64,000 nt of DNA, taken from Nordella sp. HKS 07 (GTDB taxonomy: Bacteria; Pseudomonadota; Alphaproteobacteria; Rhizobiales; Aestuariivirgaceae). Where the stretch lies: positions 744,001-808,000 of the forward strand of contig NZ_CP049258.1 in NCBI RefSeq assembly GCF_011046735.1. Direction: 5' to 3'. This document shows, piece after piece, positions 38,629 to 42,890 of this stretch. Within the stretch, counting starts at the first letter, position 1. Each line of letters opens with the position of its first letter. The notes beneath the pieces are model-generated. The model saw only the letters and a program-made list of their open reading frames with translations. It did no database searches and had not been told where the DNA came from. The position numbers were made by a program, and so were the translations under genes.

Positions 38629-39819
38629 TCATATCTTCACAAGCATGGCGGTCACATACATGATCGCCAAGCCGGTCGCGGTTCCGGTCAGCACCGGCTT
38701 CGTCATCAGCCCGCTGGACAGGTCTTTCGAGCCGCGGGCCAGCAGCGCGCTGATCTCGACGACGACCTGCGCGATGGCGCCCGCGCCGATGGCCAGCGCC
38801 AGCGCCGACCAATGTGGCGCATAGGCGAGACTCCCGGCCCACATGCCGATGACGGCGGGCCCTCCGGCGATCAGCGCCAGCAGCGCGAAATGCTTCAATG
38901 ACGGTTTGATCTTGAGAAGCGGGGCCGCGATACCGATGCCTTCGGTGATGTTGTGGAGCGTGAAACCCATGACCAGGAATGTGCCGAGACCGGCGGCGCC
39001 GGCGGCAAAGGCGGCGCCAATGGCAAGCCCTTCCCCGAGATTGTGGAGACCGATGCCGATGGCGATGTAGGTGGCAAGTGCCAGGCCGCTTGGCGCGCCC
39101 TGCCGGCGCGACAGGCTGAGCAGGAAGGCGAAGCTCGCACCGGCGGCCAGGATCACCATCATCGGTCCCTGGAAGATGCTCGCCGAGCGTCCGGCGAATT
39201 CAAGCGCATCCTCCAGCGTGTCGATCAGAAGGAAAACCAGCAGACCGACGGTCATTGCCAGCAGGAACTTCATGAGCGCCGGGCCGGCGCCGCGCAAGGC
39301 CGGGAAGAAAGCCAGCCCGATCACGACCGGCACGATACCGACAAAGGCGCCCAACAGCCCCTGTGACACGAAATTAAGCGAGCTGGCCTGTGGTGTTTCG
39401 ACCGCCACCGGAATGTCGTGCCCGAAGGTAGCGCCGGTATTGGTGACGAAGGTCACGCTATGGGCTTCACCAAGCACCCAGGGAAAGGGAACGGAGATCC
39501 AGGCGACGCTGCCGCGTTCCAGGGGTCCGGGCGGATCCTGGGTGAAGCGCCAATAGGCGGAATCGACCTGTACCTGCGCGATGGTCATCGGTTCCGAACC
39601 ACCGCCCCTCACCAGGAGCCGGATGCCATTCTGGTCGAGTATCGTGCGCTCGACGGTGAGATTCTCGACCGGCGGCGCGCCATTGCCGAAATTGCCGAGC
39701 AGATCACTGGAGACGAGCCACCACAGCGCGCCGATCAGCAAAGCAAGGGGCACGAGAAGCCAGGAAAGCCTGGCATAGGACGGCGCGACGGAGGATTGCG
39801 GGGTTTCGTCGACGCTCAT
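38629..39819 (-). CDS. ZIP-family metal transporter with N-terminal extracytoplasmic domain
   Basis: The 396-residue protein has an N-terminal helix (20-38) and a beta-rich non-membrane domain (about 50-145). About eight helices follow from residue 150. Helices IV and V carry the ZIP metal motifs HNLGEG (259-264) and HNITEG (289-294). ZIP proteins move divalent metals (Zn, Fe, Mn) towards the cytoplasm. The about 100-residue extracytoplasmic domain is unusual, as most ZIP proteins start directly with the membrane part. Its start overlaps the stop of the multicopper oxidase gene (ATGA), so the two are translationally coupled and share the promoter with MntR-type operators. Manganese is the favoured ion from the regulator; iron or zinc is possible. 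Confidence 0.85.
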   Translation of the reverse strand: MSVDETPQSSVAPSYARLSWLLVPLALLIGALWWLVSSDLLGNFGNGAPPVENLTVERTILDQNGIRLLVRGGGSEPMTIAQVQVDSAYWRFTQDPPGPLERGSVAWISVPFPWVLGEAHSVTFVTNTGATFGHDIPVAVETPQASSLNFVSQGLLGAFVGIVPVVIGLAFFPALRGAGPALMKFLLAMTVGLLVFLLIDTLEDALEFAGRSASIFQGPMMVILAAGASFAFLLSLSRRQGAPSGLALATYIAIGIGLHNLGEGLAIGAAFAAGAAGLGTFLVMGFTLHNITEGIGIAAPLLKIKPSLKHFALLALIAGGPAVIGMWAGSLAYAPHWSALALAIGAGAIAQVVVEISALLARGSKDLSSGLMTKPVLTGTATGLAIMYVTAMLVKI

Positions 39820-40943
39820 GACAGGGCCTCCACCACGTCGAACATGCCCATCCAGCCAAGCTCGGTGAATTCCGACTGATGAGCGTGGAACATATAGAGC
39901 CCCGGCTCATGATCGCTCTGCTCGGCAAAGGTGAATTCCAGGATGCCGCGCTGCGCCTGACATTGCATGATGATGTCGACCGTCTTGAGCGTCGGCGTGA
40001 GCGTCGTGCCCTGGTCGTAATAGTCGAAGAAGTTGCCGTGCAGGTGGAAGGAGTTGATCGGATCGAACTCCGTCACATTCACCAGATAGATGCGGACCGG
40101 CCGGCTGCGCACCACCTTGATCGGCTTCTTGGCATAGCAATGGGCAATCGTGTTGCAGGCGTAGAACTCATTCTCGCCGTCGAAATTCGTGTCGAAGGCG
40201 TTCATGACCATGGCCATCTCCTGCCATCTTGCGTTCTCCGGCGTGCCGAGAAGACGCGACTTGGCGGCTTCGGCCATCTCGGGATGACGCGCCGGATCGG
40301 GATCGATCACGAACAGGCCATACATGCCTTTGTGGATATGCCGCGCCAAGGGCAGCGCGTGGCAGTGATAAAGATGACAGCCATAGGGTCTCGCATCGAA
40401 TTCGTAAGTGAACTCCTCGCCAGGCGCGACGAGACCGGCGCCCGGAATGCCGTCCATGCGGGCAGCGTGAAATCCATGGAAATGCATCGAATGAGGATGC
40501 GACCCGAAATTCTTGAAGACGATGCGCACCCTTTCTCCCTCGGTGACGCGCAAAGCGGGACCGGGAACACGTCCATTGAATGTCCAGGCCGGGAATTTGA
40601 CGCCAGGAGCGATCTCGATCTCCTTGTCTTCCGCGGTCACCTGGAAGGTGCGCAGCTTGCGCCCGTCGGGCAGGTACGACACCTCGCCCGTATCCCACTC
40701 GGTCAGCATCGCTGTGGGGTCGAAGCCGTTGTTCGCGCTGTCGACATCGCCAACGGTGATCATCTCGCCATGGGCGTTCACGTGCGCGCTGGTATCCGCG
40801 GCGGCGGAATTGTGCCCTTGATGCCCTGACACCTGATCGCCTTGCCCGAGCGCACCTTTGGCACCGACCAGGGCACTGCTCGCCGCTAATAGTCCCGCCC
40901 CCATCAAACCGCGTCTCTTGAGATCGACCGGCCAGCCCGACAT
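39816..40943 (-). CDS. two-domain multicopper oxidase, exported
   Basis: ATG 40943 (375 residues) has a ribosome binding site (GGGAG) and a signal with twin Arg (LKRRGLMGAGLLAASSALVG). Copper ligands are visible: H154-F-H156 (MHFHGF), H193-C194-H195, H202/H204 and M207 in domain 1; H300-L-H302 (FHLHG) and H353-A-H355 in domain 2. The Cys of the type 1 site is in domain 1 only, since domain 2 has HAH. A two-domain protein with trinuclear-site His in both halves should assemble as a trimer, like nitrite reductase and two-domain laccases. It is the first gene of the operon with ZIP, under MntR-like operators. It may oxidise Mn(II) or Fe(II) in the periplasm. Confidence 0.88.
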   Translation of the reverse strand: MSGWPVDLKRRGLMGAGLLAASSALVGAKGALGQGDQVSGHQGHNSAAADTSAHVNAHGEMITVGDVDSANNGFDPTAMLTEWDTGEVSYLPDGRKLRTFQVTAEDKEIEIAPGVKFPAWTFNGRVPGPALRVTEGERVRIVFKNFGSHPHSMHFHGFHAARMDGIPGAGLVAPGEEFTYEFDARPYGCHLYHCHALPLARHIHKGMYGLFVIDPDPARHPEMAEAAKSRLLGTPENARWQEMAMVMNAFDTNFDGENEFYACNTIAHCYAKKPIKVVRSRPVRIYLVNVTEFDPINSFHLHGNFFDYYDQGTTLTPTLKTVDIIMQCQAQRGILEFTFAEQSDHEPGLYMFHAHQSEFTELGWMGMFDVVEALS

Positions 40944-40993
40944 GACACTCTCCCAATTAGCCCACTCAAAGAATATCAGCATATGCGTAATAT

Positions 40994-41009
40994 TATAGCA
41001 AGAGCTATA
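40994..41009. promoter_or_regulatory. putative MntR operator 1
   Basis: The palindrome TATAGC-AAGA-GCTATA matches the core of the known MntR site, ATAGC-N4-GCTAT. It lies 51 bases upstream of the multicopper oxidase start and probably overlaps its promoter. Confidence 0.7.
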
Positions 41010-41034
41010 TTTTGTGAAAAGTATCGGAATGTTA

Positions 41035-41050
41035 TATAGCCGTAGCTATA
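41035..41050. promoter_or_regulatory. putative MntR operator 2
   Basis: The palindrome TATAGC-CGTA-GCTATA has the same core as operator 1. Its centre is 41 bases away, about four helical turns. It lies about 21 bases upstream of the mntR start, so autoregulation is likely. Confidence 0.7.
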
Positions 41051-41070
41051 TCGTTTTGGAGTGAAGTGAG

Positions 41071-41520
41071 TTGAAAGAGGCCTCAAACAGTCCGGCGGAT
41101 GAAACCTCCGGCGCCGATGCGCGCGCCGAAGGTTTCCGTCAGACCCGCCACAATCGGCGAAGCGAACTTGCTGAGGACTATGTCGAGCTGATCGCCGAGC
41201 TGATCGCGAGCCGCGGCGAGGCCCGGCAAGTCGAGATCGCGCAGCGCCTCGGGGTAGCGCAACCGACAGTCGCCAAGATGCTCAAGCGCCTCGCTGCGGA
41301 AGGTCTGATCCTCCAGCAGCCCTATCGCGGCATTTTCCTGACCGAGGAGGGCAAAAGTCTTGCCGAGATGAGCCGTGAGCGGCATCAGGTGGTGGAGAGT
41401 TTCCTGCTGGCTTTGGGTATCAGCGCGGAGACGGCGCAGGTCGATTCCGAAGGTATCGAACATCATGTAAGCCAGGAAACCCTCGACGCCTTCAGGGAGT
41501 TCCTGCGCAAGAATTCATAG
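41071..41520 (+). CDS. mntR: manganese-responsive regulator, MntR/DtxR family
   Basis: The 149-residue protein starts with TTG 41071 (GGAG 12 bases upstream) and matches enterobacterial-type MntR. A polar lead is followed by [20 protein letters not shown]. The winged helix-turn-helix is [20 protein letters not shown], then [20 protein letters not shown]. The metal and dimer domain holds [20 protein letters not shown] and [17 protein letters not shown], with Glu/His ligands. MntR represses or activates Mn transport genes when Mn2+ is high. It diverges from the multicopper oxidase-ZIP operon, with two matching palindromes between. Confidence 0.9.
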
Positions 41521-41552: not shown

Positions 41553-42890
41553 TCAGGACTTTGATCGTTCCGGACCCGAAGTCGAGGCCGATTGTCGGTT
41601 TTCATCCCCGGTGATGAGACGCGCGCCTCGCTCGAACGAGAAGTAGGCCACGACCCAGTCGAGGAAGACGATGGCACGGTTACGGAAGCCGATGAGGAAC
41701 CAGATATGGGCAAAGCACCAGATCACCCAGGCGACGAATCCGGACAGTCCGAAGCCGCCGAAATCCGCGACCGCCGATTTGCGCCCGATGGTCGCGAGAT
41801 TCCCATAATTCCGGTACGCGAACGGATCGGCCGCGCGGTGATCGAGCTTGGCCATGATGGCCAGAGCGGCATAGCGGCCCATCTGTTTGGCGGCGGGCGC
41901 GATACCGGGGACAACGACGCCTTTGGCATCGGTCACCGCGGCCGTATCGCCGATCACGAAGATATTGTCGGCGCCCGGCGGATGCAGCTTCGCGTCGACA
42001 AGGACCCGGCCGGCGCGATCGCATTCGGCCTTGAGCCACCTGGCCGCCGGTGACGCCACGACGCCCGCCGCCCAGACAATCGTAGCGGAGGCGATCCGGC
42101 TGCCGTCCTTTAGGGAAACTCCGTTCTGATCGCACCCCGTGACCGCGGCGCCGGTCATGGTGGTGACGCCGAGCCGGGCAAGCTGCTTTGTCGCCGAGCG
42201 CGACAGTCGCTCCGGGAATGAGGCCAGGATCCTGCTACCCGCTTCGATCAGAATGATCCTGCTCTGAGTGGAGTCGATGCGGCGAAAATCGCGTCTCACC
42301 GTGCGGTGCGCCAACTCGGCGATGGAGCCCGCCATTTCGACCCCGGTCGGACCACCGCCGACGACGACGAAGGTCAAGAGATGACGGCGTTCAGTCTCGT
42401 CTTCCGTGGCCTCTGCCTGTTCGAAGGCCAGGAGAATCCGGCGGCGGATCTCTGTCGCATCATCGATCTTCTTCAGGCCAGGGGCGAATTCCTCCCATTG
42501 ATCATTGCCGAAATAGGCATGCCGGGCGCCTGTGGCGACGATCAGATAATCGAACGGAACGCGGCGCGTGGCAGTCACCACCTCGTTCCTCGACCTATCG
42601 ATATCGACCACCTTGTCCATGAGCACCGCGACATTCTTCTGCCGCGAGACGATGCGCCTGATCGGCGATGCGATCTGGGCGGGCGACAGGCCGGCTGTCG
42701 CCACCTGATAGAGCAGCGGTTGGAACAGATGATAATTGTGCCGGTCGAGCAAAGTCACGTCGACGGGCGCGTGACGGAGTGTTTTGGCGGCCGTCAGCCC
42801 GCCAAACCCGGCGCCGAGGATGACGACCTGGGGTCGCCTTGACGATGCGTCTGGGCTGTCGCTCAAGCCACACCTGCTTGTTTTGTCCAA
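41553..42890 (-). CDS. type II NADH dehydrogenase-like FAD oxidoreductase
   Basis: The 445-residue flavoprotein has two Rossmann motifs: the FAD site VVILGAGFGGLTAAKTLRHA (about 22-41) and the NAD(P) site FVVVGGGPTGVEMAGSIAEL (about 173-192). It also has the NDH-2 quinone-side segment NYHLFQPLLYQVATAGLSP and the FAD end-motif NIFVIGDTAAV. A hydrophobic C-terminal stretch (FVAWVIWCFAHIWFLIGFRN) anchors it to the membrane. It should pass electrons from NADH to quinone without pumping protons. The only available start codons are TTG (42890, or 42866), so the N-terminus is uncertain. It reads towards mntR. Confidence 0.9.
   Translation of the reverse strand: MDKTSRCGLSDSPDASSRRPQVVILGAGFGGLTAAKTLRHAPVDVTLLDRHNYHLFQPLLYQVATAGLSPAQIASPIRRIVSRQKNVAVLMDKVVDIDRSRNEVVTATRRVPFDYLIVATGARHAYFGNDQWEEFAPGLKKIDDATEIRRRILLAFEQAEATEDETERRHLLTFVVVGGGPTGVEMAGSIAELAHRTVRRDFRRIDSTQSRIILIEAGSRILASFPERLSRSATKQLARLGVTTMTGAAVTGCDQNGVSLKDGSRIASATIVWAAGVVASPAARWLKAECDRAGRVLVDAKLHPPGADNIFVIGDTAAVTDAKGVVVPGIAPAAKQMGRYAALAIMAKLDHRAADPFAYRNYGNLATIGRKSAVADFGGFGLSGFVAWVIWCFAHIWFLIGFRNRAIVFLDWVVAYFSFERGARLITGDENRQSASTSGPERSKS

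What the first reader, a model, noticed from the sequence alone, without database searches (positions are those of the whole stretch)
38629..41520. MntR-controlled multicopper oxidase plus ZIP transporter module
Seen: an MntR-type gene diverges from a coupled multicopper oxidase-ZIP operon, and two TATAGC-N4-GCTATA palindromes lie between them. Known: E. coli MntR binds sites with an ATAGC-N4-GCTAT core and controls Mn transport genes. Inferred: oxidase and transporter are one manganese-responsive unit that oxidises a metal in the periplasm and moves it across the inner membrane. I am not aware of a described MntR regulon built this way.
Basis: partly seen in the sequence, partly recalled or inferred. 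Interest (0 to 1): 0.72.

Follow-up and report, generated by a model that had tools for sequence, protein, structure and literature searches.

The report
Manganese-controlled oxidase and metal importer operon
A copper-containing oxidase and a metal transporter are encoded together behind switch sites of the kind cells use to turn manganese uptake off, and the same gene pair turns up beside manganese- or iron-type switches in distant bacteria and archaea, so it looks like an uncharacterised way of taking in manganese.

Summary
A single-copy mntR diverges from a multicopper oxidase (MCO)-ZIP pair that overlaps by 4 bp. The only two exact TATAGC-N4-GCTATA sites of the 7.18-Mb genome lie between them; the MCO-side site overlaps the -10 of a promoter-like TTTTCA-17-TATAAT. 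E. coli mntH carries the same core.

ZIP follows MCO in 80 of 80 loci found by MCO, 6 of 6 genomes found by ZIP and 20 of 20 plasmid loci opened. The regulator changes but stays of manganese/iron kind: 30 of 30 loci with window-type MntR have ATAGC-N4-GCTAT; 16 of 18 with another MntR have TTAG-N6-CTAA; 22 of 32 without MntR have a Fur-family-like TGCAA box, seen also at mntH in 5 of 7 genomes. DtxR-family genes adjoin the pair in 9 of 17 non-alphaproteobacterial loci.

Best reading: a manganese-repressed import module, ZIP as importer, Tat-exported MCO as periplasmic metal oxidase. Metal, direction and the MCO's role are inferred. Ten text searches found no description; the likeliest paper was not held. 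Patchy: 7 of 289 genomes.

The parts
38629..39819 (-). ZIP-type metal transporter with an extra N-terminal anchor and periplasmic beta domain
   Evidence: ORF; Pfam Zip below cut-off; model mean pLDDT 83.7; best fold match BbZIP 5tsa
38635..39381 (-). eight-helix ZIP core (residues 147-395); HNLGEG 259-264 and HNITEG 289-294
39412..39666 (-). beta-sandwich domain (residues 52-136) between the anchor helix (14-37) and the ZIP core; periplasmic side inferred from usual ZIP topology (recalled)
   Evidence: only weak fold matches
39816..39819 (-). 4-bp overlap (ATGA) of MCO stop and ZIP start
   Evidence: overlap of 4 in 56 of 80 loci by automatic start choice
39816..40940 (-). two-domain multicopper oxidase, probable start at 40940 (listed ORF reaches 40982)
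40839..40940 (-). twin-arginine export signal region of the oxidase (end approximate)
   Evidence: read from sequence; R23 R24 invariant in 17 sequences from Alphaproteobacteria to haloarchaea
40992..41020 (-). promoter-like TTTTCA-17-TATAAT of the oxidase-ZIP operon (10 of 12 matches)
40994..41009 (.). operator A, exact TATAGC-N4-GCTATA, overlapping the -10 and spacer
41035..41050 (.). operator B, exact TATAGC-N4-GCTATA, 21 bases before the mntR start codon
   Evidence: no promoter-like site on the + strand
41071..41520 (+). mntR, manganese-binding DtxR/MntR-family regulator

Best explanation
It is a manganese-repressed metal import module. When cell manganese is sufficient, Mn-MntR binds operators A and B, covers the promoter and keeps the oxidase-ZIP operon (and probably mntR) low. 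When manganese is scarce both proteins are made together. The ZIP brings a divalent ion, most likely Mn(II), into the cytoplasm. The Tat-exported two-domain copper oxidase stays in the periplasm and uses O2 to oxidise a competing or toxic reduced metal, most likely Fe(II) or Cu(I), so that the ZIP takes mainly manganese. Shown by sequence: gene pair, operators at the promoter, copper and metal ligands, regulator-operator co-variation. Inferred: binding, repression, metal, direction and the guarding role of the oxidase.
For: Exact operators unique to this locus in the genome, one overlapping the -10; same core upstream of E. coli mntH; single MntR; TTTAGC-N4-GCTAAA at this genome's better Nramp gene. 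Site type follows regulator type: ATAGC-N4-GCTAT 30 of 30 against 0 of 18, TTAG-N6-CTAA 0 of 30 against 16 of 18. Loci without MntR: TGCAA box in 22 of 32, same class of box at mntH in 5 of 7 genomes that have both. DtxR-family genes adjoin the pair in Deinococcus (with Nramp), Actinobacteria and haloarchaea. All eight trinuclear-centre histidines and the T1 Cys/His ligands invariant in 17 oxidases; ZIP metal-site residues invariant in 19.
Against: No binding, expression or transport data. At least 6 of 20 plasmid loci have a gene annotated for copper resistance, chaperoning or binding nearby. 10 of 80 loci have no exact match to any of the three operator patterns, and 8 of 17 non-alphaproteobacterial loci have no adjacent DtxR-family gene; one of these has an ArsR-family gene instead. 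In G017 the oxidase has a TGCAA box but mntH an ATAGC site. DtxR-family regulators can sense iron rather than manganese (recalled). The -35 is poor in most relatives (at least 4 of 6 in 2 of 30). The guarding role rests on chemistry, not on data.
Confidence: 0.55

Rival explanations
1. Copper-tolerance module: the oxidase detoxifies Cu(I) as CueO does, and the ZIP brings in manganese (or zinc) to replace metals displaced by copper; MntR control reports that loss.
For: Copper-annotated neighbours in at least 6 of 20 plasmid loci; the oxidase is related to copper-resistance oxidases (CopA 89 bits, CueO 50 bits, both far below cut-off); mobile plasmids.
Against: The window copy has no copper gene among the five proteins scanned here; operators are of MntR, DtxR and Fur-family kinds; only 13 methionines in residues 60-388, so not Met-rich.
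Confidence: 0.2
2. Oxidation-coupled uptake like Fet3-Ftr1: the oxidase hands its own oxidised product (Fe(III) or Mn(III)) straight to the ZIP.
For: Strict pairing and overlap of the genes; extra domain on the ZIP that could dock the oxidase; Rieske or plastocyanin genes directly after the ZIP in 2 of 3 cyanobacterial, 2 of 3 Rhodococcus and 4 of 5 haloarchaeal loci.
Against: The permease has the ZIP fold and ZIP metal-site residues and no RExxE motif; ZIPs carry divalent ions (recalled); no redox partner beside the pair in the window or the 80 loci (one distant weak match).
Confidence: 0.13
3. Detoxification: MntR acts as an activator at high manganese, the oxidase turns excess Mn(II) into oxide and the ZIP exports or redistributes metal.
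For: MntR activates manganese efflux genes in B. subtilis (stated in a passage of PMC9240420); some multicopper oxidases oxidise Mn(II) (recalled).
Against: Operator A overlaps the -10 in the window and a -10-like hexamer (at least 5 of 6) starts inside the site in 27 of 30 relatives, a place for repression; ZIPs are importers as a rule (recalled).
Confidence: 0.06

Closest known systems
MntR regulon of E. coli (mntH; target status recalled)
   Same: Same regulator family; same ATAGC-N4-GCTAT core just upstream of mntH
   Different: Target is an oxidase-ZIP operon; mntR itself shares the intergenic region
Mur regulon of rhizobia (sitABCD, mntH)
   Same: Relatives without MntR carry Fur-family-like boxes at this operon and at mntH; Mn-repressed in R. 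leguminosarum (PMC5575495, passages)
   Different: The window's locus uses MntR; the oxidase-ZIP operon is not named in the passages seen
Fet3-Ftr1 iron uptake of yeast
   Same: Multicopper oxidase paired with a permease
   Different: Permease is a ZIP, without RExxE; two-domain bacterial oxidase; manganese-type control
Two-domain multicopper oxidases 7rab/7rac and 3gdc
   Same: Same family (E 2e-166 and 7e-97); the 3gdc residues printed read the same as the Arthrobacter FB24 plasmid oxidase, which lies in such a pair
   Different: Named only 'multicopper oxidase' in the PDB listing; no physiological role found
ZIP transporters ZupT and BbZIP
   Same: Fold and metal-site residues
   Different: Extra N-terminal anchor and beta domain; HNLGEG and HNITEG where HNxPEG is usual (recalled); below curated cut-offs

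Membership tests
MntR (proteobacterial type) | Curated family score | tested here: met
   NF008273 227 bits, cut-off 153
MntR (proteobacterial type) | Metal ligands of B. subtilis MntR (D8, E11, H77, E99, E102, H103; recalled) present | tested here: met
   Ungapped alignment to 1on1 puts them at D36, E39, H105, E127, E130, H131, all invariant in 29 sequences
MntR (proteobacterial type) | Mn-dependent binding to its operator | not testable with these tools
   Sites present; binding needs an experiment
Multicopper oxidase, two-domain, T1 copper in domain 1 | Two Cu-oxidase domains, eight trinuclear-centre His, T1 Cys and His in domain 1 only | tested here: met
   Pfam; H167, H169, H206, H208, H313, H315, H366, H368, H164, C207, H215 invariant in 17 sequences; site roles by recalled patterns
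Copper nitrite reductase | Curated family score | tested here: not met
   TIGR02376 91.5 bits, cut-off 296.3
CueO / CopA copper-resistance oxidase | Curated family score | tested here: not met
   CueO 49.6 against 525, CopA 89.1 against 478.95
ZIP transporter | ZIP fold with paired metal-site residues in TM4 and TM5 | tested here: met
   Best fold match BbZIP; H259, N260, E263, N290, E293 invariant in 19
ZIP transporter | Curated sequence score (Pfam Zip; NCBIfam ZupT) | tested here: not met
   29 against 35.1 bits; 33.9 against 252: a divergent member, not ZupT
Fet3-Ftr1 uptake | Ftr1-type permease with RExxE | tested here: not met
   No RExxE; ZIP fold
Mur regulon (relatives without MntR) | Mur box shared with known Mur targets | tested here: inconclusive
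   TGCAA box in 22 of 32 and same class at mntH in 5 of 7 genomes; that it is the Mur box rests on recall

The most novel reading that the evidence does not exclude
The pair is an uncharacterised, horizontally spread manganese acquisition system of aerobic bacteria and haloarchaea in which a periplasmic copper oxidase is needed for the ZIP to do its work: an oxidase-gated ZIP, sometimes with a Rieske or plastocyanin electron carrier, put under whichever manganese-type repressor the host owns (two kinds of MntR, Mur, DtxR type).
Probability: 0.3. Interest if true: 0.82.

Novelty: new variant of a known kind. Interest (0 to 1): 0.62.

Why it matters
The well-known bacterial manganese importers are Nramp and ABC (Sit) types (recalled). 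A conserved oxidase-ZIP unit under manganese-type repressors would add another kind and tie copper enzymes to manganese supply. It makes directly testable why microbes pair metal oxidases with permeases, suggests a role for a two-domain oxidase family with solved structures but no stated function, and the exchange of operator types upstream of one operon is a natural experiment in regulon evolution.

Tried and rejected
The MCO structure prediction had mean pLDDT 63.8 and was not used; ligands were read from alignments. The pdb_via library was not available. Palindromes with mismatches are noise in the window and in the genome (104 places at up to 2 mismatches, backward control 866), so I relied on exact 16-mers, position and conservation. 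The neighbourhoods of the other five exact 14-mers in the genome were not inspected. Wider conserved neighbourhood: the window's NDH-2 and GST had no match in the 80 loci (E 1e-10). Rieske and plastocyanin partners of other phyla: one weak match in the 80 loci (L079, about 2.6 kb past the ZIP), none directly beside the pair. Nitrite reductase, CueO/CopA and Fet3-Ftr1 membership rejected (membership tests). Fold matches of the beta domain alone were weak (archaeal pilus and archaellum proteins, E 0.008 and worse) and are not used.

Limits of the counts: the 80 loci are the best 80 of 132 found and include near-identical pairs (L012/L013, L041/L042, L068/L069, L078/L080); L152 of the ZIP search has the same oxidase as L068/L069, so the 6 of 6 holds 5 loci not already among the 80. 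The operator patterns other than ATAGC were found by listing dyads in these same loci and then counted in them; the control is random pieces of the loci. The Fisher values ignore relatedness. The automatic start choice misread L011 and L021. Outside Alphaproteobacteria the label 'MntR-II box' means only the pattern TTAG-N6-CTAA; L113 has it without a known regulator, and L107, L118 and L115 have a DtxR-family gene without it. L053, L063, L068, L069 and L070 also have an imperfect ATAGC-like site (2-3 mismatches). The 20 plasmid loci were chosen by me from 147 records to cover many taxa.
Full report
What is there. The ORF list and sequence give a ZIP gene at 38629-39819 (-), a multicopper oxidase (MCO) at 39816-40982 (-, probably starting at 40940 with a Tat signal) and mntR at 41071-41520 (+). 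The two coding frames overlap by ATGA. Two exact TATAGC-N4-GCTATA palindromes lie at 40994-41009 and 41035-41050; in the 7.18-Mb genome the exact 16-mer is found at these two places only. A promoter-like TTTTCA-17-TATAAT on the minus strand spans 41020-40992, so its -10 (40997-40992) overlaps the oxidase-side palindrome by four bases and the rest of the palindrome fills the spacer (3 promoter-like sites, all on this strand and at this place, against 0.3 in shuffles). No promoter-like site was found for mntR.

The regulator. The protein passes the curated MntR cut-off, has 2h09 'transcriptional regulator mntR' (E. coli by recall) as its best solved match, keeps the six metal ligands known from B. 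subtilis MntR (positions recalled) and is the only match to itself in the genome. E. coli K-12 has ATAGCCTTTGCTAT 17 bases before the mntH start, so the same core stands at an established MntR target (target status recalled). This genome has two Nramp genes: the better has TTTAGC-TTAT-GCTAAA about 205 bases before the matched domain, a relative of the same site; the other has none.

Conservation of the pair. A scan with the oxidase gave 132 loci, of which the best 80 were kept. In all 80 the ZIP follows the oxidase; the 4-bp overlap is kept in 56 of 80 by automatic start choice. Divergent MntR is found in 48 of 80. Because that scan started from the oxidase, I also searched with the ZIP: 7 of 289 sampled Alphaproteobacteria have it at E <= 1e-40, the window's genome included. 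The other 6 all have the oxidase directly upstream, and 3 of them have MntR directly after the ZIP (one of the 6, L152, has the same oxidase as L068/L069). Of 147 plasmid records with a ZIP match I opened 20 loci: all 20 have the oxidase directly upstream. They include Cyanobacteria, Deinococcus, Bacillaceae, Actinobacteria and haloarchaea.

The switch changes, its kind does not. The 48 loci with MntR fall in two groups. Thirty have the recognition helix [14 protein letters not shown] and all 30 have an ATAGC-N4-GCTAT site; 18 have other helices (GVxxPTVxKxLxRL), none has that site, and 16 have TTAG-N6-CTAA. Random 280-bp pieces of the same loci have these in 35 and 20 of 4000. The sites sit at promoter-like places: in 27 of 30 a hexamer with at least 5 of 6 TATAAT bases starts inside the oxidase-side site, though a -35 with at least 4 of 6 is seen in only 2 of 30; all 16 TTAG sites follow TTGACA (15) or TTGACT (1) at -10 distance. 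Of the 32 loci without MntR, 2 keep the exact ATAGC site, 22 have TGCAA-N11-TTGCA or TGCRA-N5-TYGCA (background 20 and 26 of 4000) and 8 have none of the patterns; five of these eight (Mesorhizobium L020, L023, L027, L031, L032) have a site 2-3 mismatches from TATAGC-N4-GCTATA. So 70 of 80 loci have one of three operator types. The TGCAA boxes look like Fur-family (Mur) boxes by recall. As a check I searched Nramp in 21 of those 32 genomes: 13 have one. Of the 7 that have both an Nramp gene and a TGCAA box at the oxidase, 5 have the same class of box upstream of the Nramp domain, one (G017) has TATAGCATCAGCTATA instead, and one (G021) only a half site. In R. leguminosarum sitABCD and mntH carry a Mur box and are repressed by Mur with manganese (PMC5575495, passages).

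On a tree of 107 oxidases the three operator labels need at least 5 changes (shuffled mean 35.1; 29 rows without a label not counted, quick method, LG+G4, 27 of 100 inner branches under 80% support). Operator type follows lineage but seems to have been replaced several times, while manganese/iron-type control stayed.

Other phyla. A DtxR-family gene lies directly beside the pair in 9 of 17 loci outside Alphaproteobacteria: Deinococcus, three of three Arthrobacter-type loci, one of three Rhodococcus loci and four of five haloarchaea (not). Domains were checked for six of the nine; the other three are by annotation. None adjoins in three Cyanobacteria, two Bacillaceae (one search has an ArsR-family gene there) or two Rhodococcus. 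In Deinococcus the regulator is followed by an Nramp gene, and TTAG-N6-CTAA lies 57 and 189 bases before the oxidase, the second next to the regulator's start. All four haloarchaeal loci with the regulator have TTAG-N6-CTAA 23-39 bases before its start (background 79 of 5000 random 200-bp pieces); L107, L118 and L115 have no such site. A Rieske gene follows the ZIP directly in two of three Cyanobacteria and two of three Rhodococcus (3 kb further in the third); a plastocyanin gene follows in four of five haloarchaea. DtxR-family proteins can sense iron or manganese (recalled), so outside Alphaproteobacteria the metal is open.

The proteins. The oxidase has T1 ligands H164, C207, H215 and eight trinuclear-centre histidines (H167, H169, H206, H208, H313, H315, H366, H368), all invariant in 17 sequences from Alphaproteobacteria to haloarchaea; it looks like a working O2-reducing two-domain oxidase and fails the nitrite-reductase cut-off. 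Assignment of residues to sites rests on known patterns (recalled). The 3gdc residues printed read the same as those of the Arthrobacter FB24 oxidase in such a pair. The ZIP model (53 relatives, mean pLDDT 83.7) shows an N-terminal anchor, a beta-sandwich and eight long helices; the best solved match is BbZIP (E 5e-7). H259, N260, E263, N290 and E293 are invariant in 19 sequences; H289 is nearly so.

How it most likely works, and how sure. Shown by sequence: pair, operators, co-variation, ligands. Inferred: Mn-MntR represses; low manganese induces; the ZIP imports Mn(II); the oxidase removes a competing or toxic reduced ion at the ZIP's periplasmic face. Against: at least 6 of 20 plasmid copies lie near genes annotated for copper, so copper tolerance is the main rival; direct oxidation-coupled uptake and detoxification are less likely.

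Novelty. Ten text searches listed no paper whose title, abstract start or read passages describe this unit; I did not read most listed papers. The 2006 reconstruction of alphaproteobacterial iron and manganese regulons (recalled) is not held, nor is the pSinB plasmid paper cited in PMC6115938 known to be held (not looked up), so prior notice cannot be excluded. I rate it a new variant of a known kind, sporadic within Alphaproteobacteria but spread over several phyla.

Noticed in passing
L102 5096-5521, L103 5074-5508, L108 5053-5472, L116 4553-4972; L109 5119-5529, L110 5100-5522, L117 4599-5021, L120 4599-5021: A Rieske protein (Cyanobacteria, Rhodococcus) or a plastocyanin-like protein (haloarchaea) is the third gene after oxidase and ZIP, which hints at an electron-transfer partner. 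Absent beside the window's pair.
   Followed up: partly
L020, L023, L027, L031, L032, upstream of the oxidase: Five Mesorhizobium loci without mntR share a half-decayed site, [CT]TAAGCCATTGCTATA, that may be read by another regulator or an altered MntR.
   Followed up: no
L039, L044, L047, L048, L050, L052, L056, L061, upstream of the oxidase: Devosia-type loci have two different boxes about 45-50 bases apart, TGCAA-N11-TTGCA and TGCRA-N5-TYGCA.
   Followed up: no
L063 and L069, upstream of the pair: ORFs that look by eye like mercury-transport proteins (MerT, MerP type) lie nearby, so some copies may travel with mercury-resistance genes (not scanned).
   Followed up: no
L067: A contig labelled Verrucomicrobiaceae carries a locus that falls among Rhodobacterales; probably a misbinned metagenome contig or recent transfer.
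   Followed up: no
G000:C1:5022009-5022024 (L143), upstream of Nramp in L088: TTTAGC-TTAT-GCTAAA: likely second MntR-type target of this genome, with a slightly different site.
   Followed up: partly
window 41553-42890 (-): Type II NADH dehydrogenase-like protein (NDH2_C domain) convergent with mntR; no match in the 80 related loci.
   Followed up: partly
L105 5605-6568, L106 5081-5257: tatA (and tatC in L105) genes follow the pair in Bacillaceae plasmids, in keeping with Tat export of the oxidase.
   Followed up: no
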